The translations under genes were made by a program, and so were the position numbers. Positions 7,701 through 31,500 of a stretch of DNA of 64,000 nt are shown in pieces. Position 1 is the first letter of the stretch. The number at the start of each line of letters is the position of its first letter. This stretch comes from Sclerodactyla briareus (lineage: Eukaryota; Echinodermata; Holothuroidea; Dendrochirotida; Sclerodactylidae), in NCBI GenBank assembly GCA_026419785.1, contig JAODTK010002132.1, positions 62,001-126,000 on the forward strand, written 5' to 3'. A model generated the notes under the pieces. That model was not told where the DNA came from. It did not search any database and saw nothing but the letters and a program-made list of their open reading frames with translations.

Positions 7701-7704
7701 AGCC

Positions 7705-8117: not shown

Positions 8118-8215
8118 CATTAGTGTCGAAAAGCTTCGAACCAGGGGGGGGGGAGGGTTCGAACCCCTGGACCCCCCCCCCCCCCTCTGTATCCGCTATT
8201 GGAACCCCCCTCTTC
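8118..8215. repeat. G-run / C-run hairpin with perfect 12-bp palindrome
   Basis: A G10 tract is followed by the palindrome GGGTTCGAACCC (8155-8166) and then by a C14 tract, so that G-run and C-run can pair. The text GTATCCGCTA repeats twice after it. This resembles the end of a dispersed repeat. A GC motif (TTGCGCGACGCAAAAAA) follows at 8268-8284. Confidence 0.5.
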
Positions 8216-8449
8216 GTATCCGCTACTGCCGTCAATAATCTACGCCAGATGTGGATTTTTTTTTTTGCGCGACGCAAAAAATGAAGATAAGAAACCGAGG
8301 AATATTCGAATATTACGAAGAACGGCACAATCAAAAACTTCGATTACACCGTAGCTGATGGACGGGCGAAGATTACGTTGTTTGGGGGTAATGAATGACA
8401 GAAACACTAAATCCGGAGAAACAGGAAACAAGAACAAATGGAGGAATAA

Positions 8450-10400: not shown

Positions 10401-10810
10401 GGTCCGGTGTGAGTTGGCCATTGCAGCATTTCATGTTACCACCCTGTGATTTGGTGGTAAGAGCCCCGCCACAAAGCAGTACTCGTCTGAGGATTCCCGA
10501 TCACAACTATTACCCCCTCACTGGCATTGGTTACCTCTCGTGGTATAGGCCCGTCACAACACGTGTCCCTGGATGGGTCCCAGGTATCGCCCTCGTCCCG
10601 AGCCGCATTTGGCCCCCCGCTGCATGAGTATGTCTCCCCGCCTGTAACGAGCCAGCATGTATCATCTTCTGCACTGTACTTTCAGGCTTCCCACAGCATC
10701 GATCATTGTCCCCAGCGTTCTGGTGAGGCTAACCTCGGCCAACACCTTGCCCCTCGACGAAGCGTAAATCAAGACTCCCGCAACAGGCCTGAATTTTGCC
10801 CCTGACTATT
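10400..10810 (+). other. GC-richer open segment, unknown
   Basis: After the AT-rich stretch the composition changes abruptly. Two overlapping plus-strand frames (10409-10627 and 10527-10805) stay open, but their products are proline/serine-rich and match no family I know. It may be a repeat remnant or chance. Confidence 0.2.
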
Positions 10811-11878
10811 GGGTCTCGGGTACCTGAATAGAGACGAACAAAAGTGTGGTTCTATTATTCCGCGCCCTTCCAACCGGTCCAGGTTCAGACTTATTCCCCG
10901 AAACACTCCCCTTCGAGAGAAAAAAACCTCTCGTTATTCATATTGAGCTTGCCAATGCGAACGCTAAGAATGGATATATATATGAATATGTTTAAATTGA
11001 AACACGGTGCACATGTTTTAAACTGGTATTACATACTACTGTTTAGCTGCTTGAACGCACAGTGCCTAATTACCGGCATGGTTTTTTCATTACTCAAATA
11101 ATTATCTGCGTCTGAGATTGATGACAAAATAGTACCCGTGGAATAGCGTTCAATTTCAAACCAAACCGTTATGTGTCTCCCTTAGCATCTCAACACAACT
11201 GTAACTTGTGACGTCAAGGGAGTAAGCAAGTCGAATATTCAATTATAGGATAAGCCGAGTAACCGCCGAGTTTATTGTTACAACACTCTGAAACCACATT
11301 TTGTTGATGGTGGCTGATGAGCCAGGGTGACAAGAACGCCCAGCCCTGTTTGCCATGAAAAACCTACTACACCAAATGAAAACAGTTTGAAATAACCGAT
11401 TCTTGAACCCCCAGTTGTTAAAAATGGTACTATTGGTTATTTCGATTCAAATCCCCCCTCCTCAACCCCGAGTTTGTTTGTAGGTATTCTGGGATTGCTT
11501 TCATGAATACTTACTTGAAACCGTTAAAAATACACCATCTCTCGCATTTCCCGTATTGTACTTCACTGGGGTCCACAGCCATCGGATCCCGATTCCCTGG
11601 AACGGTCTTCCTTCGCACATTATCGTCGATGAGTCAAGTTCGGCCCCCGTAACGGTGGTCCGACCCAGAGCAGGTCAGCATGCCTGTAAGGGTTATATGA
11701 AACGTTCGACGCAGCACAGCTTGAGTTATCTCAGGCACATACCTCTGGCCGCCACAGCATTCATACCCTGTAGAATAATATTGCAAGTTATTATTATAAA
11801 TTCCCTAATCGAGCACTCCCACTTCTAAAGAAAACGCTACACAAGTGAGTAGAATCCCCACACAGCGGAGTCACTATA

Positions 11879-11985
11879 AGTGCGCCCATACGGGATCAAG
11901 TGACCCACAAGCTTTGTATGTGCTGATTCACACATAAGGGCGTGAGTCAGCACGTGCGCCCATTTTTCACATGACCCCCAAAGGA
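11879..11985. repeat. compound direct and inverted repeat
   Basis: GTGCTGATTCAC (11920-11931) and GTGAGTCAGCAC (11942-11953) form a near-perfect 12-bp stem with a 10-base loop. GTGCGCCCAT occurs on both sides (about 11880 and 11954), each time followed within 20 bases by a TGACCC motif. No function is known to me. Confidence 0.5.
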
Positions 11986-12253
11986 TGGGCCCCATTCTGT
12001 AAGTCTCGCGGATTGGGGGAGAAATTTTCTTTACTCTGACAGTTCTGCTAATACTAGCTCCATTTCCGTTAATCTTATTAATTTGAGTACTGTAGTTGCT
12101 GCTGTTTGTTGGGTATGAATTTGGCTATACTCATTTTCGGTTAACTATATTCCTTCAAACGTTCAACCTATTTTCTTGACAACATTGATATTCTCCTTTT
12201 TCTTTACATAACGCCTACCCTGAAGTTTCACTACTCACAAGGGCGGCGATCAT

Positions 12254-12370
12254 GGGGGAGGGGGGGGGGGGGGGGGAGGGGAGACGCGGGGGGGGTGGTG
12301 ACTGCTCCCCCCCAATATTTGTGGGTTGGGGGGGGGGACGCAATGCATGTCGTCCCCCCCAATATTTGAG
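12254..12370. repeat. G-tract cluster with duplicated CCCCCCCAATATTTG
   Basis: Long G tracts (12254-12297 and 12327-12338) are interleaved with two copies of CCCCCCCAATATTTG (about 12308 and 12355). Several G-runs in a row on one strand make this a candidate G-quadruplex region; that is inference. Confidence 0.5.
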
Positions 12371-12486
12371 CCCGACTGCTATTTCGCTGACAACTGTATC
12401 CGACATATCCCTCAGCAACCTGTTTAAAAAACAAATGGCATGATGACCTAAATATCGCGTTGAGGGAATTCTGCTGCTCATTTTCG

Positions 12487-12511
12487 AAATTTTGCGCGCC
12501 TGGCGCGCGGA
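12487..12511. repeat. GC hairpin beside AAATTTT
   Basis: AAATTTTGCGCGCCTGGCGC is followed by GCGG: a GCGCGCC/GGCGCGC stem with a two-base loop, of the same class as the other GC hairpins. Confidence 0.6.
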
Positions 12512-12724
12512 TATTTCCAATGTTGTCGGTAGTGTTCAGAATAGATGGTGCCTCCTGCCGACATATGATGTTCTTAACAAAAATGCCTGACATTTACACT
12601 CTGGGTTTGTTCTCAATTACCATGAAAAGCAGGTTCCTCATCCCTATCGTTTACATAAGACAGCTTCACCAGCTAAGTTTTGTCTCTCCTTCATTGGACG
12701 TTGTCAACAAAACTCGCTATCCTG

Positions 12725-13330
12725 AGGTGAAGGGGGGAGACGACGGGGGAGTAGTTCTACCACCTGGCGGGAAATGTGGATTTTTTTTGTTATGTGCGAC
12801 GCACTTGTGAAAGTTTTAGTGCACTACTTGCACATACTATCATATGAGGGCACACGGTGCGGCATCGAAAATGCAACCAGGGCACGCCACAAATTACTTG
12901 TCAGAAAGACATGATTCTCACAATTCAAGTGAAGAAAGGCTGTCCAAAAGTGAGATCCACATATTGCCTAATGTTTGATGGATTCCAAATGTAAACTCTG
13001 TTGTCTTTGAAGGAAGATGTTGGGACGGAGGCTAGTCTACACCTGGCGGGACCTATGATTTGTTTTTGGCAAAATATGGTCTATCGCAACTTTAAATAGA
13101 GTATTCGGGCAATCATTATGGGTCGACCCCTTTTTTGAATTTGGTTGCGTGCACGTTGCACCTCTAACTAAGGGGCAGAACACCGGTGGGCGGGTGGAAA
13201 CCCCATGAAAATAGTCTCGAAGATTCGGCCAGGACACGCCATCATTTCGTGCAAGATCATTTGAGTAATTTTTTGGTGAAGACAAGTTTATATCCAAGAT
13301 TGCCTGTCTTTTAGATGAATGTCCAAAAGT
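12725..13330. repeat. two degenerate copies of a ~300 bp repeat
   Basis: Copy one (about 12725-12960) and copy two (about 13015-13330) share, in the same order, CACCTGGCGGGA-like text (12762 and 13040), a CACGCCA motif (12883 and 13238) and TGTCCAAAAGTG (12940 and 13320). The text between has diverged. No coding content was seen. Confidence 0.5.
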
Positions 13331-13332
13331 GT

Positions 13333-13362
13333 AAAATTTTCGCGCGTGCTTCGCGCGCAGTT
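13333..13362. repeat. GC hairpin beside AAATTTT
   Basis: AAATTTTCGCGCGTGCTTCG followed by CGCGCAG: a CGCGCG-type stem around a TGCT loop, directly after the second copy of the ~300 bp repeat. Confidence 0.6.
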
Positions 13363-13565
13363 GCGGTTTTAATTTCCTTCTGTGTTATACTCATTTGAAC
13401 CAGTCCTGGCCCAAGTAGCAATTCCCCCCATGCCCTGTGGTCGCAAAGAAGATAAAAACGGGGGCCGTAATCTTTAAGTAAAAAACATCATGGCCTGCCC
13501 TATCGTAAGTGATAGTCAGAGAGTGGTCAGTGCAATGTCGATCGGTGGTCCAAATTTGACCCTGC

Positions 13566-13588
13566 AAAATCTCGCGCTTCGCGCGAAC
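13566..13588. repeat. GC hairpin
   Basis: AAAATCTCGCGCTTCGCGCG forms a CGCG stem with a short loop; same class as the others. Confidence 0.5.
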
Positions 13589-13811
13589 GTCTGGTGGTGC
13601 ATTGTCCATTTTCGATGCATCTTCATACTGAACCTCCCTTGCCATCGTAATTTCAGATTGTTCACAGCACCCGCCGCAAAACCTTGAAATTGATCCCTAG
13701 TGCGATAATTTTTGGAGAACCCCCCCTGAATGAAAAACTGTTATCCGTTAGAATGCTGCTGCTGTCCTATGAGGCATGAAGAAGTGCCGTTCCTGCACAT
13801 CTAAGGGGGTC

Positions 13812-13910
13812 TGGCAAACTAAAAATTTTCTTGTAAACGCTACGCGCAACCTGTGGTGGCGCTCTTCTTAGATGGTATTCATTTGGTCCGTCCCCCCCAA
13901 CCGCCAACAA
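13812..13910. repeat. dispersed repeat, first copy (second at 52630-52745)
   Basis: The text CAACCTGTGGTGGCGCTC (about 13847-13864) recurs exactly near 52648-52665. Both copies are preceded by a GC-rich word and followed within 50-60 bases by a C-run. Both are plus-oriented. Confidence 0.55.
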
Positions 13911-14416
13911 ATCGCCGCCCTTGCTAACTCATTATTACATATCTATACTGTTGTCATCTGATTGGCTCTTCACGATGACGATTCCGGATCAGGTTGACTC
14001 CTCGAGGTGAAGCCTTCACACATTGCATTGGAAGAATCAGTTTGGTTATGCTTGGAGTCTGATTCTCATGTTGCTTTGAAAAAAAAAAAAAAATACTCTA
14101 TTTCATTTCACGCATTTCAGTTCTATCTGAGGCTTGTGTTTCTTATTATCAGGCTTTCTTTTGCTGCCCCGGTCTGCCACTAGGCAAATAACCAACTAGT
14201 GTTATAACGTGTGTATTGACAGCCAGGTACAGGCCAACAGAGAGTTGTTGCATTATGGCTGTTATCACACGCCGTTGGTAGTTGATGGGAGCATATCGTT
14301 ACAATTCACATGTTGACGACCTATGTTTTCGAAGATACAGTATTTGGAGCTGAGAGAGGGGCGGCGATAGAGAGCAGAACAGCTAGTGAAGGCCCTCCGG
14401 AATCGATAATACAAAC

Positions 14417-14620
14417 CTCCATCTTTTTCCATCAGAGTTCCCCCCGCGCAAGCAGATGTTAGTTTCCGTGTCGAATCCCTTCGATCGCCCCAGGCAAGCA
14501 GCAAATCGCTTGATTCCCTTCAGCATGTTTGATGTGCGGAATCATATGGCCCTGGCAGCATAGTGTCCTTCTCATTGTCGTGTATAGTACTTCCGGCACC
14601 GTAGCAGGTACGAGGGTATG
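14417..14620 (-). CDS. galaxin-like exon 8, heavily disrupted
   Basis: Galaxin-type words are spread over three frames in the right order: CYGAGSTIHDNEKDT, LCCQG, PYDSAHQTC, GNQAICC and KGFDTETNIC. At least four frame changes are needed within about 200 bases. Borders are approximate: the start is after GACAAGCAG (a purine-rich, poor acceptor) and the end at GGAG|GTTTGT. The density of breaks is higher than in exons 1-7, so this exon may be truly decayed. No stop codon or 3' end was recognised downstream. Confidence 0.5.
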
Positions 14621-17600
14621 CTGCTTGTCCTCTTTCTTCGGATGTTCATCGTGTTGTCGCATCCATCAACATCGCGCTGTCATAGGCTGTTACCCGCACT
14701 TGCCAAAGGGGTCATGAGAAGGATTGGTTTAATTGAGCGAGAGAGTGTTATAGGTTGTGAACAATGTTTTAGTATTGTATAAATCAGGTGTGATGGTGTG
14801 TATACGCTGATGATTTCATTTGATGATGTTAATTACAATCGGTGCCTCACTCACTTGGTGTGCATATTCATCCGGGATTAGAAATACTTCCTCTCCGCTG
14901 ATACAAGTTTCTTTCATGGGGGGAGTATGGGGTACCAAAAACACCTTCACAGCAGCGTCTTTCTAGGCCATTGAAAGAATTTAAGAGATTCTGATCTTGG
15001 CAACAATGCTGTTTTCTAGGCTGTAGATCTGGTTACCACAATCGCCCATTCCTCGGAATAGCCATAACGGCCCTCGATTGCATTTCCTGTTGAGGATATG
15101 AATGTTCCCCATGAATAATGGTGAATACCTTCATTTTTCTGTCCTCATCGCACACTTCATTGCGCCTTAATACATTCGTTAATAATCAAATAATAGGCAG
15201 CACAACGGGGAGGTGGGCACACATGAAAACACTGAATGAACCCACAGGCCACAAGAGCGGTAGCACGCACAAAAACACAAACAAACCAGGCCACAGAGGA
15301 GGTACCACGCGTTTGCACATTGCATTCAAGAGTGGAAAACGGACAGTAAAATTGTATAAACACAATTCATTGCGTGCGTTCACACTGTCAGACCGATATT
15401 GCCGAATTTGGGTGCCCCTTTTTAGCATAGCCTACTTCAAACCTTTCCTGACTGGTGACCAGTCCCTAATTAAATTATATAGGCCCCACTATCACTGATT
15501 TGCCATTGAATACATGACTTTCATCGATATGGTTTTTGAATGTGGTATTCCTTCCGAAATAAATATCCAGACTTATCTTTTGTGTCAATTCGATGAAGGC
15601 TCAGTCGGGGCTATACCGAGTTTTTCGTGAAATAACGAACAAGATAGCCATTATTATTGCCTCACCGAAGTTTCGCATTGTACGGAATCTATCGAGTTCG
15701 CCAAAGGACGGGGTCATGACCTCCATATTGCACACTCGCTGTTTTCTCGTAGCATGTGGTACGTTGTTGCAGTTCGAGCCGATATCCTGACCCCATCTTT
15801 GGGAGAAACTGGGAGCCCATTCAATTGTGCTGATATATTTGTATTATCACGTAATTCATTATGTGCCTTCCAACACTCAGACACTGTAAAAGATGACTAA
15901 GCTGTAAAGTATTGCAGTATTCCGGTTTAGTGATAATGTATTTTACCAATGGATGAGCTATACATTTTTTTTAGGAAAACTAGCGGATTTAAAAATCATT
16001 TTCTTCCATCATGTTTTTGGCGATAATTCATAGTAATTTATTAACAGTTCAGGTTCATCGCAGTTCCCTTTTTGGGGGTGGGGGTGGGTGGGGGATGGAG
16101 CGATAGAGATGGAGTATCTTGCCCAAGGCCACACTTGTAAAGCTGTTTCAGTCTCATTGGGATTCGAACCACCCCCACTCAATTCTAGAACTTTATTTAT
16201 GAATTAAGCATTCATATGTGTTTTCTTCACATTATGAAAAAATAAGGATTGTGTTCACTCTTGTTTTCAATTCATAGATCCTTATGCCGCATTTTGGCCA
16301 ATTGGTTAGCTTGCCTGATTGGCAATATTTTCAATACAAGCGCAATATCGGCCAAATGTTGATGTAGCAGTATGGTTAGATAGTTGCAGTATGGTTAGGA
16401 TTCTTGAGAAATCAGCAATAGAGAACACCATTCTGACCTATTTATTATTCAAAGAGGACCTTACAATCATCAAAGTTGGATTATATGACACTTCTCAAAC
16501 GAAAATTGTCAGAACGGGTTGAATTGGCGAAAAATTGCAAATTAAACACGTTGGTGCGAAATTTTAAAAGAGTAATATTTCGGAAAATATATTGAACGAC
16601 TGAGTTTCATGGATATTTTAGTATTAGCATTTTCTATCGAATGAAAAATTATCAACATTCTTCTAGGCGTCCAGCCAGAGCGCCTTGATGTTTTGACATG
16701 GGCTGATGGAATGCTATCGCCAAACGACTCATTGCAACACCCCGTATATGAAGAACATGTTCTGGATTTCAAATCTTTCAGTGTATTGACTCTGCGCTTT
16801 AGGAGTCAACAAACTACGGTACAGCACACCAGATCAGGGAATATATATAGGCCTACGGGCGCATTACGGTCACTAGAAGAAACAGTTATACCCTAACACC
16901 AGAAGAAACAGTTATACCCTAACACCAGAATAACCAGGTAGACAGATCTCCCACTTACCAGGGCAACATTGCGCTGTACTCGGATCGTATACTTCGTTGT
17001 CGTTGCAACATTCTTCCTCGTTGAGTTCGTATGACTCTCCCCCGCAACAAAGGGATGTGGGTGACTCACGCCGTACGAGGATGGAACTTCGTCATGGGCC
17101 GCAACAGAGATCGTTGATGAGTTGTAGTTATTGCTGTCGATAATCAAATATAATATGAATCGGATGAAGGAGCATCCTAAAGAGTCCGAAGAGGTTGGGC
17201 GATCCGAATTCGTTTGGAGAGATCTTGCAACTTCCTTTGTTCAGGCTTATTTCCCTTGATGGGTAAAAGAAGAGGAACCTTGGCCTCCAAAACCAAATCT
17301 CTGAGAAAGTTATCTCAACCTATAAAGATAACAGAACAGAGGTAAACTGAAAGAGACCATGGGTTGAGAAGTTTCCCGAAATAGTCACGTTGTTCCACAA
17401 GGCTCTGATGAATACGTGTGTGTGTGTCGGGGGGGGGGGGGGGGGGGGGGGGGTTATGTTGCAGAATGCAGTGAGCTTATGGATCCAACCTCCACAATCA
17501 CCTACATAGTGGCTAACAGTCCTCTGATCTACTCCTACCACCCCGCTATCACATCACACACCGCTGAGGCCTGGCGGTGCTGAACAGTCATACCAGGACA

Positions 17601-20600
17601 TGGTAACAGTGGCGCTACGCTATCACACCGAGCCACTGGGCAGGAAAAAACAAAACAGAAAACGTGAATGGAACCAACCTCCGCCACAGCAGGCGTTACC
17701 GTCAGTTCCGTAGTGGTAGAGTAACCCTCCGCACTCAAACTGCTCAGTGGAGAGGTAGACTGTGTAGTTGGATTCGAAGATCTGGGTTATTCCCGGAATG
17801 TTGGGAACGAGGGGATCCAAAATAGTGTCCTCACTCCAGGTGGACTGGTGGTCGTTATACGGCTCATCATAACAGCAGCTGGCGCCCCCTGCATTAGGAA
17901 TGAGGACAGAGTAGCTTGGTTGGTAGATACACACTGATTAATCCTATGGAATATGATGCGAGTGGTGTCAGCTGTACAGGGTATTCCCCCTTTGAATCAT
18001 ATCTTGGCGTATATTTCGATGTCCGAGTATGCTCTCACATTTTGACAATTATTTTCCCTATCATCTATGTCTAACAGTTTGGGAAACGTTATTTTATTGG
18101 AAGTATGACAAGTTGTAACGGGCCGTTACTTGCCCTGAATAACTGATTGACGAACGAGTTAACAACCGAACGAACTAACCTGCAAAACTTGAGACGATCC
18201 CATGGCAACATGCTTGGTTGGCTGGATTGTACGGACTCTGGTGACAACACTTCATATTGTGAGATTCTCTTGGGAACTTGAGACCGCTGCAGCATATCTC
18301 TGTGGTCTCGTCGAAGGTGACGCGCCACAGCAACCGGTGGCTGGGGTGGCCCGCTCGTTAACAACCTGTCACGAGAAAGGAAAAAGACATTGAAGGGTGA
18401 CTCGCTTGAATTGGAGCGTGACGGCCTAATGAGTTGAAAGTCAAGCTAGTAGTCACGTGGGTGTGGACACGTCACAGCTGTCGTTATCGCACAAAAGGTT
18501 GGACAATACTCGCCCTTAGTTAAACTACAAAGTCAGATGGACAGACTGCCTAACCAACTTACTCCTCATGGGGGCACGCCGCATATACCCGGCCCATTGA
18601 CCTACACACTAACTGACCCCATTCCATCAGCTGCTGAACCTGGCAGAACATACTTCCAGGGATGAGCCTCCCACCATTTTAAAGCTGACTTTCATACCTG
18701 TCATGGCACGTTCAATTCACCATTCCTTCACCGTTTAGATTTCTCGCCAGAGTTGCCTGTGTCTTTTTAGGTTATTTTCGACCGGGGCTGCCAGTCGGAA
18801 AGTCAATATTCCCAGCATCCAAGTGTGAATTCAGAAGATGGTCAGAAATTTGCCCCCAAAATTCCCAACTGGGCATCCCACTAAGAGTTCATGATTCTTA
18901 ATATTTTTTTTCCACTGCAGGCAACACCAGACCCAGCAGGGATCGGGAAATTGCTATAAAGTGCGCTCCAATGTAATTTGGGGGACTATTTTTTAGGGGT
19001 AACTTAGGGCTGGTGGAGGAACACCAGTCTAAATGTGGTATGCTGCCTTATAGGACCACCTCTCGGTAGAATTGGAGCAATATGCCCACTGGTACTGTAA
19101 AGGCTATATTGTTACATGATATGAAGATTCATGAGGTTTTCGTTTGATGATATATTTCCTATAGTAGGTGGGGTCATTCTAGGCAGCTAGCCATCACGCT
19201 AGCAACTTGCATGTATATGGCAATAAATCTATTCTACCAGACTGCAGCAAAGTTGGGTATCAGGGTCGTACACACTGTCGCTCCCGCCAACAGGGCCCCC
19301 AAACCGTTGACCGCATTACCGTCACAGCATGTACTGATGGTGGGGTCGAACAGGTTACTACCACAGCAAATAGACCCTAGTTAGGTCGAACAGAAAAAGG
19401 AATGTTATTGATAATATGTTAAATAATGACATGAGTGTGCATACGATTATGCACCGAGGAACGTCAAACGCTTAACGCATTATCTCGATCTCGGAAACAT
19501 ACTCCCACAGGTGACAACAGTTCTCGGGGGGAGGGGGAGGGAAGTATGTAGCTGGAGCTTCTTTTCAAGTACCCAATTACCACCTGAATCAGGAAAATAC
19601 AATGAGATAACGTCATCGCCTCAAGTTTCAGGTTCAGTATGTGGAATTTAGTGCAATATACACATTCCAATACTCACACATTCGCATCTTCAAACATTCG
19701 AATTCTCACGCATTCACATTCTCATACCTTCGCCCAACAAGGACCACATTGTGCACGGATAATCTCCAATTGGGTTGCCAGTTTGTATTGTGTGACTGTA
19801 TACCCGTTTTGTACTGAATCATTTGCAGCAAATGGAAGTTGTACCTCTGGACAATGAGTTAACTAGGAATGCTTTCGTGATGTTTTGGCTATGCATGCTC
19901 CTGCATTCGTATTTTGATGAGCTCATTCATGATTTACACGTTAATGGCATATCGAGCAACTGATACCAGTAAGTTTTTTTCATTCCTTTGCCGAAGGCGG
20001 AAAGAATCTACGCAGTCATGCCACGGAAGTCTGATTATCACTGGAAGGCAGGTTTTGCATATGCGGCTGTACTGGAAGAATGTCTCCACCACAAGGATTG
20101 CGCAATGGGCAACTACCATTCCGAAAGCAATCAACGCGGAACTAGTTTTATTGTGGTGGTGAAAGAAGTTTCGATTAATTTTGTAGAAGGGAAAGAGGAT
20201 TATATCAGAGTTAGTTTGACAGTTTGCCTGCCTCAATATCAGCATTAGGCTATTTTGGGCGTTTATACAAATGATTTGTATGCAACGAAGTGATGTAGAG
20301 ATTTTATACATGGCATGGAGGGTTGCCACTTGGAGATGATTATCCTTGTCGTTTTGGGGTCAGGTCGAAGGTCAGCTAAGTTCTGTCTACGCACATTTAC
20401 AGATCCATTATAAAGGATTGAACGAGAAAAAGAAAGGAAAACGTCAGTCGTTCAGTGCAGTAGCGCGGTGAAGGAATCACGGAGCTCGTGGTTCTTGTTA
20501 TTAAGAATATTCAACTGGCTAAAGGTATACGACTAGACATCATCGATAATTCAGTACTTGCAGAAGGATTTCGTTGCTATAAGGATAATTTAGCCACACA

Positions 20601-23600
20601 AAAAAAAGAGGAAAAAAAAAGAAGAAGAGATGGAGTAATACACTTGCTGAGCCGGTAAAATTGCCTTCGTAGGACCTACCTTCAATATACGGATGGAGTC
20701 TGTCCTCGCAGCAAACGTTAACGGTTTTGTCATAGATTTCTCCTGCGCAGCATCCGTGGGTGGCAATGTCGTAAGAACTCGAATAAACCGAGTTTAGTCC
20801 ACAACACGCATGCGTAGTTCTGTCCACTATTTCCGTCACGCCGCAGCAATCATGAGAGGCGGTCCAGTACATGGATTTTTGCTTCGCTTGCTGTTGGTGA
20901 GAAAAACATGTACGAACGTTGAGATGCGTCGCATAAATTGTAAGAAAAATTATTCGACTGATTTTAAACACTGTTTACAGGCCACTGTTTTTTGACTTTT
21001 TGTCCAACTCAGACACTGATTGGATTGTAATAACTGCAATGTACTTCCCTTTTATGATTGTGGAATACCACCTTACTGGAGATGCTTGATCCTATTAATA
21101 ATGATAACGCTAAAGACAGTACTTTGTTGCCGGATTATAACCGCAGAAGTTGCGGTCCTCACGGTGTTTTTTTGAATGCCCGCAGTTTACGCCATAAAGC
21201 ACGGAGCTTCAGGCTCACTTATTGAGCCATTTTTACCACTTCATCTGTATTTGCGAGACTTGGCTGTCAGAGGCATGTGCGACCAGTAAACTTGGTTTTC
21301 CCCCAGACTTCGCCGTTTTTTAGAAGGGATCGTGGGGCAAGAGGTGGCGGTGTTCTTGCAGCGGTTTCAACAACCCTGGATCCGATACGCAATCCAGTTT
21401 TGACTCCGCCGAGCTGGAGGTGCTGTGGGTGGAGATCTCTCTTGACGGTAAAAAGTGGCTGCTTGGTACCTTATATAGCCCTCCTAATGCTGACCATCAC
21501 TTCTTAACGCAGCTTCAACATAACTTACAAAAAATCGACTCTTCGAGTTATGTCAGGATCATCTTAGGCGGTGATTTTAACGTAATTGGTTGGATGAAGC
21601 CCATTGTAACACTGCGGAATGGCTTCACTGATGCTTGGCTATGGCTTTGATCAACTTGTTATCTGACCATTATTACCGTTCCGCTTTGAACGATAATCTC
21701 ACTGGGACAGTTATTGACCTAATGTTTCTAACTTCTCCATCTTATCCATGCTAACTGTAGTGGACAAATGCTTTAGGCAGTGAACACCATGCTATCGAGG
21801 TTGAGCTAAAAAATATACGTAAGATCCCTACTAAACCTAATATTATTAGGAGCTTTTTGAATTATAAATTAGCTGATTTTAAGCATTTCAATAATCTCTT
21901 TATCTGGCTCACCTGGGATCTGTATTTTGATGACAATGATATTGGAGTCGTCTTGGGGTGGCTTTGTGGGAGTGTGGTTTCTCCTTCTATCAAGGGATCC
22001 ATTCCCTCCAAAACTTGTATTGGCCGTAGTAAGAGCCCTTGGATTAATAAGGATCTTCAAAAAACAACTTCTGTTAAAGAAGCGTCGGCTCTTTATCAAA
22101 GCCAAAAGAAGCAGGTCCCCACCTGCTGGGCCACCTACAAGAATTTCGTAACCTTTTCACACATCATCCTTTTGTAAGCCTCTTTGGGCATATATTAATG
22201 ATCTTTTATCTCTTCCAGATAATTACAAGCGTTTCTGGTCCTTTGTCCGCAGTAGGCGCAATCACCCACTCCATCGCGCTTTACGGTTAGTATGGATCAA
22301 TTGTATAAGCCAGCAGACATTTCTGATGCTTTTAATTCTCATTTTGCATCTGTGTTTGGCCCTTTGGAGGGCCCCATTTCTATTCCTCCTACCTGTGATT
22401 TGCCCATCCCGACACTGAGTCGTATATCTTTCTCTGTGTCTGACATTAGTAATATACTTGACAATCTCTCTGCTATTACGTCTGCTGGCCCTGATGGCTC
22501 TTTTAAAAGAGTCCTCTAGTGTTATTGCCCCTGTTCTTTACAGACTGTTCTGGTGTTCTTTAAATACTGGGCAGCTTCCCTGGCAGTGGAGATCTGCCTA
22601 TATAACACCCATACATAAAACTGGGGACACTACTGATTTGCATAATTATAGACCAATTTCTTCTGTCTGACACTCTATTGGTGTAAGTCTTTGAAAAAAT
22701 TGTTTCTAACTCTATTCTTCATCATGTCTTTTACAACCTACTGACGCCTTGCCCTTGTTTTTTGCCCACCTCTTGTAATACAAACAGCTTTGTAATATGT
22801 CTTATATTCTTGGGCCAGTGCTCTTGATAAGGTCAACCCTCCAATAATTGATGCTATATTTTTAGACTTTTCCAAAGCCTTCGATAGGATGCCCCATAAT
22901 ATACTATTGCAGAACTTTCTCAGCAATTTAATATCACTGGCCTTTGTTGGGATATGGATTCCGTGGTTTCCTGTGTAATGGCTGCAAAGGGTTCCAATAT
23001 CAGGGTAGTTTTTCTGATTGGGTTAGAGTTCGGTCTGGGGTCCCTCAGGGTAGTGTATTGGGTACTACCCTATTTGTACTTTTATGAAAGCTTTTATTCC
23101 TAATCTTCACTTCGCATTGTTCCTGTTTTGCTGATGATGCTTTGTTATATAAGTTTGTTTCCAACAATGAGGATGCCAGGAGTTTGCAGGATGATCTTGT
23201 CAAGGTTAGTGAGTGGTGCCATAGTAATCAAATGGCACTTACTATTGTCAGAGGCAAGCACTGCGTCTTTCTAGAAGAGGCATGTTCCTACTCAGTATTA
23301 CTTTATTGACGGTGTTAAATTAGATACTGTTGTTAACTATAAGTATCTTGGTATCACTTTTGACAGTCGACTCTCCTGGGACCCTCACTGTAACATGTGT
23401 GCTACTAAAGCAATAAATTACTAGGTTTTTTGCGTTCTATTTCTGCTGGCCTAAATAAGGAAGTCCGCTTAATATGCTTTTTAAATCCCTTGTTGTGCCT
23501 GTGCTTGAGTATGGGCTGCCTGCTTGGGGGCCTCAGAACTTGACCCAGGAGAATTGACTGGAGGGGTCCAGAGGAGCGCTTCTCGTTTTATCTCAGGGCA

Positions 23601-25103
23601 GAAGAGGCGCGAGATGGATATAATACCGCCTTATTAATAATTAATTGGTATTCTTTTTTCTTATGGTTACCATCTCCTTCCTATTCTCTTTGTTGCCAAG
23701 TGTCTCCTTGGTAACTTTGTTTGTCCAGTTTTTGTTTCCAATAATATTAAGATGAATAGTCGTCATGGTGATACTCTTCTTTTTTAATCACCTATTCGGT
23801 AGAACTGTTCTTTTAGGACTAATTTTATTAATACCTTTCCTAGAGTTTGGTCTACTTTGCCACCTGGAAACGTCAGAGAGTTGCTCCTCTTCGCTCCCTC
23901 CAGTGCCCTCAACCATTCTGCAGAGGGTCGTAGAAGACATTTTCTGTCTTTATCCCACTATATTTGATTTGTTGTTTGTATTGTTCTTCGTTATTTATTT
24001 ACTAGGGTGCACAGGCCTCCGGGTTATAGGAATTTAAGTTTCACTTTTGTTCATCCTGATCCTTCATTTGTTTTATGTATTGTTTGTTTGTAGTTTCCGG
24101 TCAAATATATAATGATGTAATTCCGTGAAATATTCGAGGGGATTAATATAACCCCCCCCCCCCCCCATTAAAATTCTGGCAAATGTGTTGGAATGACATG
24201 CGTAAGCCAGCTCTAACAAAACATTAACAGCTGCATCATGCAGGGAGCAATAAACCCTATTATTTTCAGATGTTGGCAATAGCGCATAAATGCAACACAA
24301 GTGCAAATCAACACAGTGTGCAATTCCAAACATGAAGTTCTGTTGAGCATTAGGCGAAACTTGGACATACTTGAACGGAATCGAAATATTGTATTAATAA
24401 AAGTGGGTCATTCTAGGGAATAATTACGGAAGACTCCGTCATTTCAAAATCGTACCATGCCATAATCGTTTCGTTTGCAGGAAGACAGTAGGGAGGGGGT
24501 ACGCTGATTTCACATTGAGGAAAGAAACGGAATAGCGCGCTTAGAAACTTTCAGCTTTGATATGAATTTTATTTTCTCGATGCGAGATACCCTCCGTCGA
24601 AGAGTGCACTAGTGCATTGTGCATTGTAGCTCCCCCATTCAGGCTTTCTGACGAAATGTTCCCAGTAATGGTTGTGGGGGACTCCTAAGATAGGGGGAGC
24701 CTACCCCAAACTTGACGAACGGAGAGACATGTGATTTTTTGAGCGCACCCCGCAGCTAAAAAATAAACGTGCTTATTATGATCAATTGATTCAAGTTCTC
24801 ATCCATTTAATCCAGTAGCTCACTTGCTGCGATGGGGAGAAGGGAAGGGGGGGGGGGGGGGGGTCTTCATCTGGGATTATCGGGAAGGTTTTAAACTAGC
24901 GGTTATATCCTCCCCCCCCCCCCTCTAATCTGAGTAAGGGGATACGTTATTGATAATCTAGTTCGTCATTTTCCTTTACTTACAGCAGTCAGTGAGGGCA
25001 TCTTTTTGGTATAAGAGGTCCCCGCAACATACTTCGATAGCCGTGTCGTATTTCACAGGGCAGGAAATGGGGCCGCAAGACGACACTTCTCCTTCCACTG
25101 GCG
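14417..25103 (-). CDS. galaxin-like paired-cysteine repeat gene, partial, at least 8 exons
   Basis: Minus-strand exons at 24984-25103, 20680-20886, 19238-19376, 18180-18340, 17679-17888, 16959-17133, 14945-15086 and 14417-14620 encode repeats with the signature (Y/F)D-P/E-x-T-x-x-CC-x(G), spaced about 12-30 residues apart. This is the hallmark of galaxin, first found in the coral skeletal matrix and later seen as galaxin-like secreted proteins in molluscs and other animals. Galaxins are extracellular and cysteine cross-linked; a role in matrix, mineral or mucosal surfaces is inference here. Most exons run phase 1 to phase 1, so modules could be added or skipped without losing frame. No signal-peptide exon, start codon or stop codon was found. 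Exons 3, 4, 6, 7 and 8 need one or more single-base corrections, so it is either a pseudogene or sequenced with indel errors. The first intron contains an antisense LINE. Confidence 0.78.
14945..15086 (-). CDS. galaxin-like exon 7, two frame breaks
   Basis: The acceptor CATATCCTCAACAG opens a phase-1 frame reading EGRYGYSEE. One base out of register it continues GDCGNQIYSLENSI, and again one base out CCQDQNLLNSFNG and ERRCCEG, up to a possible donor GAAG|GTGTTT. The length of 142 becomes 144 with two added bases, which restores phase 1 at both ends. The motif NQIYSLENSI followed by CC is typical of galaxin repeats. The donor is weaker than in exons 1, 2, 4 and 6. Confidence 0.58.
16085..16180 (-). 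mobile_element. tRNA-derived SINE, family B fragment
   Basis: On the minus strand the B-box-like GGTTCGAATCCC (16159-16170) is followed by CCTTGGGCAAGATACTCCAT (16109-16128), nearly the same as in the full family B copy at 61262-61590. It lies within the intron between exons 6 and 7 of the galaxin-like gene. A G-rich run borders it. Confidence 0.55.
16875..16930. repeat. 26-bp perfect tandem duplication
   Basis: The unit beginning AGAAGAAACAGTTATACCCT occurs at 16875-16900 and again at 16901-16926 without a difference, with the start of a third copy. It sits about 30 bases from the donor of galaxin-like exon 6. Confidence 0.75.
16959..17133 (-). CDS. galaxin-like exon 6, internal frame break
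   Basis: The 3' two-thirds reads SLCCGGESYE, EECCNDN and VYDPSTAQCCP in one frame up to a good donor, CCTG|GTAAGT (phase 1). Upstream, the same frame has NDLCCGP followed by a TGA stop, while the next frame over reads TKFHPRTA across the stop. The start at 17133 uses the acceptor ATCGACAG. The length is then 175 bases, one more than a multiple of three, consistent with a net one-base error. Confidence 0.7.
17416..17453. repeat. GT microsatellite joined to G25 tract
   Basis: A short GTGTGTGTGT run passes into 25 consecutive G bases, inside the intron between exons 5 and 6. Confidence 0.8.
17679..17888 (-). CDS. galaxin-like exon 5
   Basis: The 210-base exon is open throughout and phase 1 to phase 1. 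The acceptor is CTAATGCAG and the donor GGAG|GTTGGT. It begins GASCCYDEPYN and ends GTDGNACCGG, with a long spacer of about 50 residues between the two CC pairs that includes ITQIFESNYTVYLS and a single cysteine. The NYT triplet is a possible N-glycosylation site. The long spacer is unlike the short repeats in the other exons. Confidence 0.75.
18180..18340 (-). CDS. galaxin-like exon 4, one-base frameshift
   Basis: The acceptor CACCCCAG and the donor GCAG|GTTAGT are clear. The frame starts TGCCGAS and then, one base out of register, continues FDETTEICCSG, KCCHQS, YNPANQACC and HGIVSSFA. The exon is 161 bases; one added base would give 162 and phase 1 at both ends, exactly as in exons 1, 2 and 5. 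The intron to exon 5 is only about 290 bases. Confidence 0.75.
19238..19376 (-). CDS. galaxin-like exon 3, one-base frameshift
   Basis: After an acceptor CTAG the frame gives SICCGSN, LFDPTISTCC and DGNAVNG. It then shifts, and the next frame gives GGSDSVYDPDTQLCC. The shift lies at or beside a G5 run near 19307-19312; one missing G would join both halves. The donor is uncertain. CTG|GTAGAA (exon end 19238) has the better site but phase 0, while A|GTCTGG (exon end 19243) gives phase 1 like its neighbours but is a weak site. Confidence 0.7.
19655..19735. repeat. degenerate ~14 bp tandem repeat (CATTC-rich)
   Basis: CATTC or CATCTTC words recur every 8-16 bases with CTCACA or CTCACG between them. 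It looks like an old minisatellite in the intron between exons 2 and 3. Confidence 0.5.
20340..20385 (+). repeat. AGGTCA-rich dispersed repeat scrap
   Basis: GGGGTCAGGTCGAAGGTCAG resembles the start of the repeat at 49655-49850 (GGGGTCAGGTAAAAGGTCAT) and the inverted scrap at 47538-47565. Confidence 0.4.
20680..20886 (-). CDS. galaxin-like exon 2 of those visible
   Basis: The 207 bases carry four paired-cysteine motifs in one uninterrupted frame: SHDCCG, RTTHACCG, YDIATHGCC and YDKTVNVCC. The donor is AAG|GTAGGT (phase 1). The start is chosen at an AG within CAGCAAG because it gives phase 1; the alternative AG four bases earlier would give phase 0 and break agreement with the other exons. 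Being intact over 69 codons, this exon argues that the locus was under selection until recently or still is. Confidence 0.82.
21130..24095 (+). mobile_element. non-LTR retrotransposon, nearly full ORF2, many frameshifts
   Basis: Plus-strand pieces appear in proper order. The endonuclease gives FLNARSLRHKARS (about 21170), RDRGARGGGVLAAV (about 21315) and GGDFNVI (about 21570). The linker gives SPWINKDLQK and DAFNSHFASVFGP. The reverse transcriptase gives ITPIHKTGDTTDLHNYRPIS, FLDFSKAFDRMPHN, VRSGVPQGSVLG, an ADDAL box near 23130 and KYLGITFDSRLSWDPH. The C-terminus gives VPVLEYGLPAWGP and INTFPRVWSTLPP. The stretch 21130-24095 thus holds most of a CR1/Jockey-type ORF2. Every domain is broken by frameshifts or stops, so it cannot be active as written. 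It lies in the first visible intron of the galaxin-like gene, in the opposite orientation. No 5' ORF1 was seen and the 3' end is approximate. Confidence 0.85.
24152..24166. repeat. C15 tract
   Basis: Fifteen C bases directly beyond the LINE 3' region. Confidence 0.8.
24847..24923. repeat. G17 and C12 tracts facing each other
   Basis: A G17 run (24847-24863) and a C12 run (24912-24923) are separated by about 48 bases and could pair as a hairpin. It lies 60 bases from the donor of galaxin-like exon 1, within the intron. Confidence 0.6.
24984..25103 (-). CDS. galaxin-like exon 1 of those visible
   Basis: On the minus strand a TTTTTTCCCCAG acceptor precedes the exon and a GTAAGT donor follows it. 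The 120 bases run phase 1 to phase 1. The reading includes SCGPISCPV, KYDTAIEVCC and TDC at the end, where the codon is split by the intron. This is the cleanest exon: perfect splice sites, no frameshift. The frame that reads this is not the longest open frame in the region. An upstream exon with the signal peptide must exist beyond 25103 but I could not identify it. Confidence 0.78.
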
Positions 25104-27080
25104 CTGGGGAAAAAAGAGACTGGGGCTCGACTGAATGAGGCACGGTTTATTTTGTCTGTGTATACTCGTACGAAGTTATTGTCTATTGTTGCGTGTTTGG
25201 TCGTGTTGCTACGTGTGGTTGTCTTCATTAAATAACGATAACCACTCATAGCCGAAGCGAGAATCAGAATATTCCTAATATGGTTCTCATTTTTTCATAA
25301 GATTTTTTGTAAGGAGGTAAAACATAACATGCGGTTATGTGCGTGTGTGAGTTTGACTTGCTCTCATATTGACGACCTGAAGAAATGTTCTTTACTGACC
25401 TCGTGAGTCATTTGAATAGATTATATTTTCATTGTTAATCAAAGTACAATTGAATAGGGTATACTCATGACTGCACGATGAATGTAAAGCCGACTTCTAT
25501 AGGCATTTGAGCCTAAATGTGACCCTGCATTTTTATCATACCGGGGACAGACACATTAATGCATACCTCAGTATACGACTCCACTGGTCCGAGACAACTC
25601 CATAAATTGCCCTTTCGTCTCAAGTGTTACTTACAAATCCGTCGAAAATCGAATGCTGGCTTTAGTCGTCCTCTTATTGATAAGATACACTCCAAAACAA
25701 ATAGAATATGTAGAATTGGAAACATGATTGAGAACAAATGAAAACAAAAAGAGAAAAGTTGATGAGAGGCAAATTGGGAAGAAAAACAAGGAATTCATGC
25801 ATAAATGGGATTGTTTTCGAATTCAGGCAATTCTTAACGAAAATTTGAACTAATGTGAAGAAATCGTAAATTGAAAAATACCAGGGATGCGTGCATCAGT
25901 GCAATAGCAGGGGCTAGATAAGATACTAGCCTAATTTTGATTTTCCTTTTGGCAAATTTTTCCTGCTAGTAAAAAAATAAGCCCACGTAGTGTCCCCGTT
26001 ACTTTTAGTTTTTAGTAAAGAGTAGTAAGCAGGTGAGAACCATGTAATGAGGGAAGGTAAAGTATTGGGTTACTGCTACTCTATTCTTGCATTTCGGTGA
26101 GATCGATAGATCGGCTTACTGCCGTTCTGATAGGTTTGCAAGTTGATTAGCATACGGTGCAGTTACGGGACGATTTCCAATAATTATTTCAATTTCTTCG
26201 TGTGAAAAATACAATTTTAAAGCTCGGAAACATGTTAGTTTTGTATTGCCTTGAAGTGAACAAAAATGGATAACAAAATCATTCAATTTCCCATGATGTT
26301 GATTATTTCATGTAATAAGCCAGTCCGTAGTTGTAGGTGCGCATGCTCACCCTTGACAGTTCGGAGGAATAGAGGCGATTCCCCTATAGCAATATCGTTA
26401 TGGACTATTTTTAAACTGTCACCACTGTTTGAAAACGAACCAATTTAATCCCATTTTTCGGATGTTTCTGTTGATAAGTATGTGGGATCTGTGTATTTTG
26501 TGTTGAAGGATTCGTATTTTCGGCAGGTGAGTTTCGAAGATCGTTCCGCACACTGTACGTTCAATGTCGACTGCTGTCGTTCCCGTATGACCTTTGACAT
26601 AAAAATCATTATCATCTCATTAACTGTAACTCCGAACTGGCTTATAGGTCAATCACAAATGAACTGGGTGAGAATATTACAAACAAGGCAAATGCATGGA
26701 CTGATGAAAAGAGTGGGAAAATGGAAACGTCGTATACAATGCATAGACACTGGAACCGAAATGAGAGCCTCTTGTTTCTCCAGTTTATGAAACGTCTAGG
26801 CCTCTCCACCACCAATGAAAGTTGAAAAACAATGTTACGTGATAGCCTACCTGCATCGTTACCACATCCTTCGATTGTCGTGAATAAACAATAAAACATT
26901 TCATGAAATCAAAGTATATTCAAGTTTACTAAATACATGAAAGGAATTCTTCTTTGTTTCTAGTGATATCATAAGAAATGTTTGCGCGGTTGTAACAGTT
27001 AAGATTTCTTTTGAAAGTTAATTGATGTGGAAGCTTGACCTAGGTTATCCTGGTACCGTCCTATTCCGGCGATTAATGAC
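25104..27080. other. upstream of galaxin-like exon 1, no exon recognised
   Basis: The missing 5' exon or exons of the galaxin-like gene could lie here or further right. No CC-rich frame and no convincing signal peptide next to a donor was found. Open frames at 25559 and 26482 (plus) match nothing. Confidence 0.4.
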
Positions 27081-27084
27081 GACT

Positions 27085-27350
27085 CCAGCACTATATTTCA
27101 TACAACTTATCATACAACTAATTTTTTTTATGTAATATCTCATACAATTAAATCTATACGCTATATCTCATAACTATATACAAGTCTATATCTCAGTTCA
27201 GCTAAATCTCCACCGCTAATCTCAACCGTAACCGTTAATCCACATATAGCAACTCTTCAAGCTATATCTCATGTAGCTAGTCTATACAGCTATATATTTC
27301 ATTAGCTAATCATAAAGTTATACCTCACCCAGCTAACTATACAGGAATCC
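27085..27350. repeat. degenerate ~25 bp minisatellite (CTATATCTCAT)
   Basis: CTATATCTCAT or a close variant appears repeatedly, each followed by a short ACAACTA or AGCTAA word. About ten diverged units fill the stretch. Confidence 0.6.
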
Positions 27351-28138
27351 CCCTACAGGTTTTATCCTACTCTGCTCTATATAGCGTGATACCCAGCCCT
27401 ACTTCGGAAAGCTACTATATATGGATCAGAATCGACTCAAATATAAATAACAATCTACTCGTTTACAGAATAGTGAAGTATAAATTAACTTCCCCATCGG
27501 ATATCATCTTCCGTCTTTCTGCTATCAAAGTCCAACTCAAGGCAATATTTACTGTGTAGACCGATATGCGACCTCGAAGTTGAAATTTGAAGTTTGAATG
27601 TTGAAAGTAAAATAAATAGTCCAGTAACTGCACGAATTATGTAACTGAAAATAACAAACTTCAGTAACAGAATTCTGTTGAAACTGATCAAATTGTTCAT
27701 GGTTATCGGCCAGGATTCGAATATTCATGAAAGTTATAGTTCTTGGGTAACTGTAGGTAGACTATCCACACGTGGAGCGCATTCAGCATTAAAAAAAGGA
27801 TTTTATTCGCCCTTCGCTTTTATCACCATTATAGGTACTTTTCTCACAATTATAAGCCATACACCTGCCGCCTGTAGTCGGTATTCCTATTCTGTGTAAA
27901 AACACCTTTTGTTTGCTCAAAGGTTCTCCGTATAACAGAAAGTACATGGTTGTGTATTTACTACCGCCACGTCTGTTTTTGTTTGCAGTCAGTTGGAAGA
28001 GTACAGTAGTTCCTCGTTATGCAGATCAATAGGCTAGGCCTACTGAGGCCTGTGTGGAAACCTTTTTCACACTCGCGAAATTCGTTGGCCCCAGAGAAAC
28101 TTCGTAACGTTTCTCCTTACCTTCTGCAAATAGTTATT

Positions 28139-28210
28139 TACTGGTTCATATTGTATTATTGGAATACCTTGCAACGTATTACTGGTTTATATTGTATTAT
28201 TGGAATACCC
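28139..28210. repeat. 36-bp tandem duplication
   Basis: ATATTGTATTATTGGAATAC occurs twice, 36-39 bases apart, each preceded by TACTGGTT. Confidence 0.65.
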
Positions 28211-28387
28211 GCTAGAGGTGACTATAGGGAGACCGATATCATATGTCGCCTTGAACGATCCGGCATTCAGCAAAGCCGTGTTAATAACGACTGTCAAATC
28301 AATGCCTTCATAATGTCATTGTTCGAATACATTGTAAAATTTCAGGCCGGAACTTCCAGTGAACAAAAATGGTTATCAGGAACACGG

Positions 28388-28548
28388 ATAAATGAAATGG
28401 GTAAGTTGGTTCAGTTGGCAACATGTATACCAGGGAGTTCCTGTGTCATTTTATTATTGTTGATGTAAATGAATGGTGTGAAGTTGTTCAGTTGGTCACA
28501 TGTTATACTAGGGGAGTTCCTGGTCATGTTATTTATTGGTATGAGGTA
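28388..28548. repeat. ~78-bp diverged tandem duplication
   Basis: Two neighbouring blocks share AAGTTG(G/T)TTCAGTTGG, then CA(A)CATGT, GGGAGTTCCTG and a GTCAT motif in the same order (first near 28400-28455, second near 28480-28530). Confidence 0.6.
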
Positions 28549-28569
28549 AAGTTTCCTTTGGATCTCGGC

Positions 28570-28586
28570 GGGGGGGGGGGGGGGGG
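28570..28586. repeat. G17 tract
   Basis: Seventeen G bases after CTCGGC. Confidence 0.8.
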
Positions 28587-28599
28587 TTAATTGAAACTA

Positions 28600-31500
28600 G
28601 GACAAAAAGGCTTAAGCAGATTGCAAACTGTTGGATCAATATAGACAGGCATTAAGGATGTCTATAAATGGACACCTGTCATGATGTTTTTATTCGCGAT
28701 AGCTGTTGCATGCTATCTAGCCTGTCTCTGCTATATACTATACTAAGAGGGGAGGGGGAAAGTCTATGTAGTAAATAATGGTTTTCATGCTCCGCCCCCT
28801 CTGAAAGGCGTGTTGGCCTTGCGTCGAGCATTGGAAAGCGTGAATGTGTTTAATACGGTAGCAGCCCAATGCACCTAAAACTAGAAGAGGAGGAGGGGCT
28901 GATGAAGGGGATTTCCTAATCATGCACTTCAAGAAATGTTGGGAAGAGTTTCCCGCTTGTTTACACCTACCCCCTTCCTGATAGAAACATGATAAGTAAG
29001 TTATTAGAACGTATTCAAAAACGTTTATACCCCTCGAGATGGAGGGGAAGCTTTTTCAAAAGCGTAATCACAATACTGAAATTAATCATACTATGATAAC
29101 TCACCTGATCGGATCAAAATCCACCATAACCGTGCACAAGATCCAAATCGTTGTAGCAGGGAAATGAAGATCCCTGATCGAAGCGCGAAGATTCATGTCG
29201 TGTTTCACACAGTGTCACCTTATAATAAGGTGGGTGCGAATTCTGAATTATAGCCTTCTATCCACTTTCTGAATTATTAATCTATCTGGTTACGTCCTCG
29301 GTTTCTTTTCTCAAACTATACTGAATATCTCATTCAGCCCTGTTACTTATACGGGAATGTGCTAAGCGCGGCATATTGGGAAGTTCCCTCTTCGAGGCTG
29401 TTCTATTTATAGTACACTAACGGGGGTGGTGCCGGCAACGCTAAACCGCTATGAGACGTATTGGCAATACTCAGAATCTCGCCCGTGAACCAGGCCAGTG
29501 TTCTGCACACCCTGACGCTATTCAATAATTGCAGATTGTTCGGGTGTGTTGTCTCCCAGCTTCGGTTGATATCTCTATTCGCATATTGAATTATCGATTA
29601 GGGTAGTGTTGCACCGGTTTCCACTTTTGAAAAATGTTTCGTATTCAGCGACGACGGCATTAATAAATACATCCCAAGTTTAATGGATTTGTCTGGACGA
29701 TTGGATATTAGCCTTAGGATCGACGTTATCACTGCAAGGTTAGCGCTCTGAACGCGGTTCGCAAAAAGTTTCACGGATTGAGTGTAAACATTGACTAACA
29801 GAGGAAGGGGAGTAAAGCAGGTGGAGAAGGTCAGGCAGGGCCAGGTTATGCCAGGGAATTCGGTGGTATAAAAACAGTCAATAAGGACGGTTGTGTCGTA
29901 GATAGCAAATAGGATTATTAGCAGGAAAACCTGGGATTCAGGCGCCGGGATAATAGGGCGTTGTTCCTGCATAGCGGCTCGTGGTTGCTGAGTTAGTCGT
30001 CCACAAAAGGGGAGGGAAGGAAAAGAAAAAAAACAGAGGCCATCCTTTCCAATTGATTTGGCTTCGTTACAACTAGGTAGGGCCTAAAAGTATGTCAAGT
30101 TCATTTGCAAACCTTTCTGGGGATGATTCCTCGGGCAATTAAAATGCTCGAGTGATTTACCTACTCCATAATAGTAAAGTAAAACGTGCGAATGGCCGGG
30201 GAATTGCCTTGCGTTCATTTATAAATGATGTCATCCGCCTCAAGGGAAATGTGTCGGATGAGTACCGTATTTATACGTGGAAACCACACATTTCAATGTT
30301 GAAGAATTTGAAACGATAATTCAAGCGTTCTGGGTATAGAAAAATAGGATACAGATATGTGGCTTACCGTGGGATATGGCAAAAAGATTACGTCATTTGA
30401 CCTAACGCACTGCCTCAACCTGCCTCTTGATGGATTATTTTCTAACACCAAATTCTAAAACACATTCCTGATATGCTTAGCTGGCGGTGCTGACCAAAGC
30501 CTATTTTCGGCAATCTTCATAAGTGGAAGACGATTGGAAGAATTACCTTAATCGGAAGGAGTGGGGAAGGGAGACTGTGATCCCTCACTTGACCATCTGC
30601 TACGAACACGATTGGGCAGTGGTAGGTGATGAACATTAAAAAATTATGGTTATAGCGCCGACTCGACACAAACTGCACATTAATAGGTCACAGCCGGATT
30701 TTCACATGGTAATCTACTTACGTATACTAAAAAACTGACTAACATCATTGTGGAAGTTCATCGCTTGTTCACTGATCAGAACTTGCATAATGGATAAAAT
30801 TATTAGGGAGAGTCATGCTCCTGTTTTAAAGCGAAAATGTCGGTAGTATAATTGCAATTGTTCAAGGAAGATATTATAGACCTGTATACTCCTTCGTTCG
30901 TGACGTAGATGTAGTCCGGAATAGGATTATTCAGTTTGTACCGTCTGTTTTTTCGGACATTTCGCTGCGCTGGCCTTTTCGTTAGCCTTGGGCGTGGTAC
31001 ATGATTTCTGGACGACCATGTGGTTATAGGGGAAAGACGCACATAATATGACCACAGGCAACAAAAAAGGAAGCTGAGTTTAGAAAACTGGGCATGATCA
31101 CACCCCACCCAAAAATACACCTTTCTATCAGAGGACTCTTGAAGCAGTTTTCGGGAAGGTGTGCCAGACCTAAGATTTCGCATGATATGCCTATCCGCGA
31201 AGACTATAGCATTAAGGAAATATTACCCCCAGACATGTTTTTTGTGCAATTTATCTGCACCAGTATCGTATGTTATAGATTATTAACATTTTGGAATTTA
31301 CGAATTTTCACTATTTTTCAAGATATTTGCTGATTCCAATGGCTGAAGGGTTCCAGATTAATGATAACAGAAATACAATTTCTTCCAAGCAATTCACGGA
31401 AATCACCGAAAATGTGAATTTTAGGAGGGGATTTTTTTTTTCTTCAGAAAATAGGTAGGCTACTTTTTTCCAATACATAGTTAGAGACTTAGAATGACTG

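What the first reader, a model, noticed from the sequence alone, without database searches (positions are those of the whole stretch)
14417..25103. Galaxin-like gene built from phase-1 exon modules
Paired-cysteine repeats with the D-P-x-T-x-x-CC signature occur in eight separate minus-strand exons. Exons 1, 2 and 5 are exact multiples of three and phase 1 at both ends, and exons 4, 6 and 7 become so with one or two bases changed. This modular structure suggests growth by exon duplication. Galaxins are best known from corals, and a multi-exon relative in a probable deuterostome would be worth describing.
Basis: partly seen in the sequence, partly recalled or inferred. Interest (0 to 1): 0.75.

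Follow-up and report, generated by a model that had tools for sequence, protein, structure and literature searches.

The report
Galaxin-like animal gene, error-ridden assembly
The window holds a many-exon animal gene for a cysteine-pair repeat protein related to coral galaxin, a family already reported from many animals, and its broken reading frames most likely reflect assembly errors, so it is largely ordinary.

Summary
The minus strand carries exons with paired-cysteine repeats; two of nine translated pieces reach Pfam's Galaxin_repeat cut-off (30.4 and 37.7 bits, cut-off 28), and these exons give the two best matches listed for the 319.5-Mb assembly. Two further candidate exons (about 11.5 and 10.6 kb) extend the gene to about 25.1-10.4 kb. 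The exact D-P-x-T-x-x-CC signature occurs twice, its relaxed form in four window exons, not eight. Phase 1 dominates (7 of 9 introns with a readable phase) but is not uniform. The frame breaks are most likely assembly errors: an alpha-tubulin gene of the same assembly is also split over three frames. The left flank holds a second copy whose differences look noise-like. No DNA-level trace of exon duplication was found. Galaxin-related entries are already in print for Ciona, Oikopleura, sea urchins, annelids, molluscs and sponges. I could not establish that the source is a deuterostome. Verdict: a new member of a known, widespread family; low interest.

The parts
24984..25103 (-). exon 1, 120 nt, phase 1 at both ends
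   Evidence: acceptor 18 of 20, donor 6 of 9; phases; no Pfam match
20680..20890 (-). exon 2, four CC pairs, open frame; 211 nt (acceptor 20890, 15 of 20) or 207 nt (acceptor 20886, not listed by the scan); donor phase 1
   Evidence: Pfam Galaxin_repeat 30.4 bits
19238..19376 (-). exon 3, frame changes between its CC pairs; acceptor phase 1, donor phase 0 in the frame of the last CC
   Evidence: 18.8 bits, below cut-off; donor taken from copy B, where it reads GTAAGA; in A it scored under 6 of 9
18180..18365 (-). exon 4, 186 nt, one frame break that copy B shares; acceptor phase 0 in the CCG frame, donor phase 1
   Evidence: 37.7 bits; acceptor 18 of 20, donor 8 of 9
17679..17888 (-). exon 5, 210 nt, open, phase 1 at both ends
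   Evidence: 14.8 bits, below cut-off
16959..17135 (-). exon 6, start uncertain, frame broken; donor phase 1
   Evidence: 20.3 bits, below cut-off; donor 8 of 9
14855..15074 (-). exon 7, start uncertain, frame broken
   Evidence: CC pairs; no Pfam match; donor candidate 8 of 9
14417..14700 (-). exon 8, ends uncertain, frame broken
   Evidence: CC pairs in copies A and B; no Pfam match
   Evidence: one copy B piece 19.7 bits, below cut-off, another nothing; acceptor stretch identical in A and B
   Evidence: copy B piece 27.4 bits, E 3.6e-6, just below cut-off; copy A piece nothing; DTWDPSRDTCC in A and B
20985..24176 (+). insertion in intron 1 (about 3.2 kb, against 0.2 kb at that place in copy B); holds reverse-transcriptase-like frames on the + strand
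   Evidence: gap in the A/B alignment; frames, recognised by eye only
1387..33100 (.). segment with a second copy (copy B) at window coordinates -39598 to -6003 of the same contig

Best explanation
A galaxin-related gene of an animal, minus strand, with about ten exons over about 14.7 kb. Shown: tandem di-cysteine units (about CC-G-x-x-x-[YF]-D-x-x-T-x-x-CC), mostly phase-1 introns, and the best Galaxin_repeat matches listed for the genome. Inferred: the exons are joined in one transcript; the product is secreted and forms a disulfide-rich structural protein of extracellular matrix, cuticle or epidermis, each exon adding one or more repeat units. The frame breaks are mainly assembly errors, not loss of function.
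For: Pfam PF24748 at cut-off on exons 2 and 4. 5 of the 8 genome-wide matches at E up to 1 lie on this contig (3 in the window, 2 in copy B), including the best three. The architecture resembles galaxin as described in PMC2726143 (repeats of around 30 aa with two di-Cys motifs; passages). Exons 1, 2 and 5 are open. Alpha-tubulin on L025 is split over three frames (tubulin residues 76-279, about 243-296 and 295-408). A/B differences are noise-like: 916 transitions against 1,595 transversions, 1,171 of 1,663 gap openings one base long, codon positions 11/12/10.
Against: No signal-peptide exon was established: three candidates in copy A (0.36 expected), none in B. No transcript was available. Exon 4 carries a one-base frame break present in both copies, which a shared disabling mutation would also explain. 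A/B indels in the in-frame exon segments (17 insertion openings and 28 deleted bases over 767 aligned bases) are far denser than the breaks seen in tubulin. The absence of a third-position excess would also fit neutral decay. The fold model was too poor to use (pLDDT 50.2).
Confidence: 0.75

Rival explanations
1. A decayed galaxin-related pseudogene, duplicated after or during decay, with both copies dead.
For: Frame breaks in exons 3, 4, 6, 7, 8, 9 and 10; the exon 4 break is shared by both copies; no third-position excess in A/B differences.
Against: Exons 1, 2 and 5 are open, with donors of 6, 8 and 6 of 9. A ts/tv of 0.57 is unlike ordinary neutral substitution (recalled expectation: above 1). 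Substitutions in approximate exon intervals are fewer than elsewhere (115 of 1,798 against 2,396 of 21,832). An alpha-tubulin gene is broken in the same way.
Confidence: 0.2
2. Copies A and B are the two haplotypes of one locus, or noisy passes over it, wrongly laid in tandem by the assembler; there is one gene. (This can hold together with the best explanation.)
For: Noise-like differences; a 2,132-base DNA query from the gene found only A and B in the assembly.
Against: Large structural differences: the 3.2-kb insertion in A, and extra stretches in B. Non-exonic substitutions exceed exonic ones, so some of the divergence looks real.
Confidence: 0.45
3. Chance cysteine-rich open frames, not a gene.
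For: One of five reversed pieces scored 17.5 bits. Of the 16 pieces tried, 2 reach the Pfam cut-off, 1 falls just below it and 13 (one of them from another contig) lie clearly below it or give nothing.
Against: Two matches at Pfam's cut-off and the genome's best listed hits here; CC-CC excess over simulation; splice-site candidates flank the modules.
Confidence: 0.03

Closest known systems
Galaxin sensu stricto (Galaxea fascicularis, Acropora)
   Same: Tandem di-cysteine repeats; PMC2726143 gives repeats of around 30 aa with two di-Cys motifs (passages).
   Different: The RXRR motif that PMC6824150 uses to set galaxins sensu stricto apart (passages) was not found in any CC-bearing frame of the ten exons; one RXRR lies in a frame of exon 10 without CC pairs. 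Skeletal role untested. No signal peptide established. PMC2726143 section 13 and PMC4890752 (passages) restrict true galaxins to corals.
Galaxin-related genes of Ciona and Oikopleura
   Different: I had no sequences of them to compare.
Galaxin-related proteins of sea urchins, polychaetes (Riftia), molluscs and sponges
   Same: Putative homologues with di-Cys repeats (PMC6824150 passages; PMC2726143 section 13).
   Different: Not compared at sequence level here.

Membership tests
Galaxin-related (Pfam PF24748) | Profile match at the curated cut-off | tested here: met
   exon 2: 30.4 bits, exon 4: 37.7 bits, cut-off 28; the other 7 of 9 pieces below it or nothing; 7 further pieces all below it or nothing, best 27.4; in the six-frame genome search exon 2 passes only with its neighbours in the frame (28.4)
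Galaxin-related (Pfam PF24748) | Tandem repeats with di-Cys motifs | tested here: met
   (the model was built from these same units, so it is circular)
Galaxin-related (Pfam PF24748) | N-terminal signal peptide | tested here: inconclusive
   three candidates in 8 kb upstream in copy A against 0.36 expected, none in 14 kb of copy B; the nearest, at 25725, is disrupted in B
Galaxin sensu stricto | RXRR endoprotease motif | tested here: inconclusive
   none in a CC-bearing frame of the ten exons, but the N-terminal part of the protein is missing
Galaxin sensu stricto | Scleractinian origin, presence in skeleton | not testable with these tools
   source species unknown, no proteome

The most novel reading that the evidence does not exclude
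Copies A and B are two true tandem paralogues of a long galaxin-related gene in a deuterostome lineage whose galaxin repertoire is undescribed, with mostly phase-1 modules that let repeat number change by exon gain or skipping.
Probability: 0.2. Interest if true: 0.3.

Novelty: new member of a known kind. Interest (0 to 1): 0.17.

Why it matters
It adds one long, many-exon member to a metazoan matrix-protein family best known from coral skeletons. The more useful lesson is a caution: in this assembly frame breaks should not be read as pseudogenisation, and the divergence of nearby duplicates should not be used to date them, before polishing.

Tried and rejected
Salp origin was considered because of poly-G tracts; Salpa thompsoni (742 Mb, 8,815 contigs) and S. 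aspera (903 Mb, 7,850 contigs) do not fit 319.5 Mb in 3,171 contigs (PMC10686999 passages; searches). Species markers came back empty: COX1, GH6 (its control rang nowhere, so this does not show absence), exact let-7, miR-2012, part of an Oikopleura spliced leader. A single exact pattern in a noisy assembly is weak evidence either way. Rfam found nothing at gathering score in the window or in 13 loci. Structure prediction of exon 2 with four other exon pieces as alignment gave pLDDT 50.2, so no fold search was made. No PDB relative of exon 2 at E up to 0.1. Signal-peptide exon: inconclusive. DNA-level exon duplication: none seen.

Full report
What was checked. The window is bases 62001-126000 of a 188,290-base contig (C1957) in an unnamed 319.5-Mb assembly of 3,171 contigs. 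I fetched contig bases 1-70000 and 126001-166000 and examined 166 kb of the contig; bases 166001-188290 were not examined.

The repeats are real. In 166 kb, both strands, the pattern CC-x(6-26)-CC occurs 33 times (28 minus) against a mean of 4.25 in 20 order-3 Markov simulations; eight of these are overlapping hits in one low-complexity stretch near 68.7 kb. The relaxed signature D..[TSN]..CC occurs 9 times, all minus, against 2.45 expected; exact DPxTxxCC occurs twice against 0. Five of the nine lie in the window, in exons 2, 3, 4 and 6, so 'eight exons' holds roughly for paired cysteines in general, not for the signature.

Family. Of nine translated pieces, two reach the cut-off of Pfam PF24748 Galaxin_repeat (exon 2, 30.4 bits; exon 4, 37.7; cut-off 28), three score 14.8-20.3, and four give nothing. 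Of seven further pieces, three match below the cut-off: exon 10 of copy B 27.4 bits (E 3.6e-6), exon 9 of copy B 19.7, and a piece of another contig, C2718, 22.4; four give nothing. As a control five pieces were reversed: one (exon 4) still scored 17.5 bits, E 0.004, so scores below about 20 mean little alone. In the genome the profile gives 8 matches at E up to 1 (the tool scores only its best candidates), of which 5 lie on C1957 and hold the best three ranks; two are over the cut-off, one of them (exon 2) only together with its neighbours in the frame.

Exon map. Splice-site scoring (a simple consensus count) and frame arithmetic give: exon 1, 25103-24984, 120 nt, phase 1/1; exon 2, to 20680, 211 nt with the listed acceptor (phase 0) or 207 nt with a weaker one (phase 1), donor phase 1; exon 3, 19376-19238, acceptor 1, donor 0 in the frame of its last CC pair (donor taken from copy B); exon 4, 18365-18180, 186 nt, donor 1, acceptor 0 in the frame of its first CC pair; exon 5, 17888-17679, 210 nt, 1/1; exon 6 donor 1; exon 9 acceptor 1, donor 2 (read on copy B). 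Counting introns for which at least one side could be read, the one before exon 1 included, 7 of 9 are phase 1, intron 3 is phase 0 and intron 9 is phase 2. Several phases thus rest on a frame that the sequence leaves uncertain. The splice joins themselves are untested.

A second copy. Window 1387-33100 aligns with window coordinates -39598 to -6003 of the same contig, with a 3.2-kb insertion (20985-24176) in the window copy only. Part of it (4010-6787) aligns a third time at about -47.7 to -44.9 kb. Over 23,630 aligned bases 10.6% differ, with 916 transitions against 1,595 transversions; of 1,663 gap openings 1,171 are one base long. One-base gaps are only slightly enriched in runs (55% against 49% of bases). 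In nine approximate exon intervals (exon 9 was not among them) 115 of 1,798 bases differ, elsewhere 2,396 of 21,832; gap openings are 5.7% and 7.2%. In in-frame segments of six exons the differences fall 11, 12 and 10 on codon positions 1, 2 and 3. This is the mark of sequence error, or of neutral decay, rather than of two genes diverging under purifying selection; the lower exonic substitution rate leaves room for some true divergence. A 2,132-base DNA query (window 16329-18460) found only A and B in the assembly.

Why the frame breaks do not show a pseudogene. The tubulin profile gave 7 matches; I looked at three of their loci. On L025 the alpha-tubulin gene matches solved tubulins at E 6e-121 (residues 76-279), then continues in a second frame (about 243-296, E 2.7e-16) and in a third (295-408, E 1.2e-76). 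L026 and L028 show tubulin stretches in several frames by eye. Two facts run against this reading: the break in exon 4, between TGCTGT and GTCACC, has the same length in both copies, which a systematic error or an old mutation would both explain; and the A/B indels are much denser than the tubulin breaks, so this contig, or copy B, must be poorer than the tubulin contigs, or partly decayed.

Function, inferred. By the family's known cases the product is probably a secreted structural protein held by disulfides. PMC2726143 (passages; section 13) suggests that ancestral galaxins were structural matrix proteins recruited later to coral skeletons, says that clear galaxin orthologues were known only from scleractinians, and names galaxin-related database entries of Ciona (expressed in tailbud epidermis) and Oikopleura. 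PMC6824150 (passages) lists polychaetes, molluscs, sea urchins and sponges, and uses the RXRR motif to set galaxins sensu stricto apart; that motif is in no CC-bearing frame of the ten exons. PMC4890752 (passages) calls galaxin coral-specific; PMC3923803 (passages) adds nothing on deuterostome galaxins. So a galaxin-related gene in a deuterostome is not new. Paper searches on galaxin.

Exon duplication. No DNA similarity between parts of the gene region of copy A was found (self-blastn, same strand, E up to 1). Recent exon duplication is not supported; old duplication is not excluded.

Species. Not resolved. COX1, GH6, exact let-7, miR-2012 and a spliced-leader fragment all gave no match; none of these is strong evidence, and the 18S search did not complete.

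Noticed in passing
window 20985-24176: Insertion with reverse-transcriptase-like frames on the + strand inside intron 1, absent from the second copy; by eye its frames look broken by shifts more than by stops (not counted).
   Followed up: partly
window 33164-44692: Long array of a 47-bp satellite, about 68% matches and 13% indels in its main part, GC about 57%; the second copy also ends in it.
   Followed up: no
window 1387-33100 and -39598 to -6003 of the contig: Large tandem segmental duplication, true or an assembly artefact, with a third partial match at about -47.7 to -44.9 kb.
   Followed up: partly
L021 (C2718:158349-158429): Possible second galaxin-like locus: two CC pairs with WYNPQEDLCC, 22.4 bits, below the Pfam cut-off.
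   Followed up: partly
window, e.g. 17429-17453, 24847-24863: Twelve poly-G or poly-C runs of 14 bases or more in the window.
   Followed up: no
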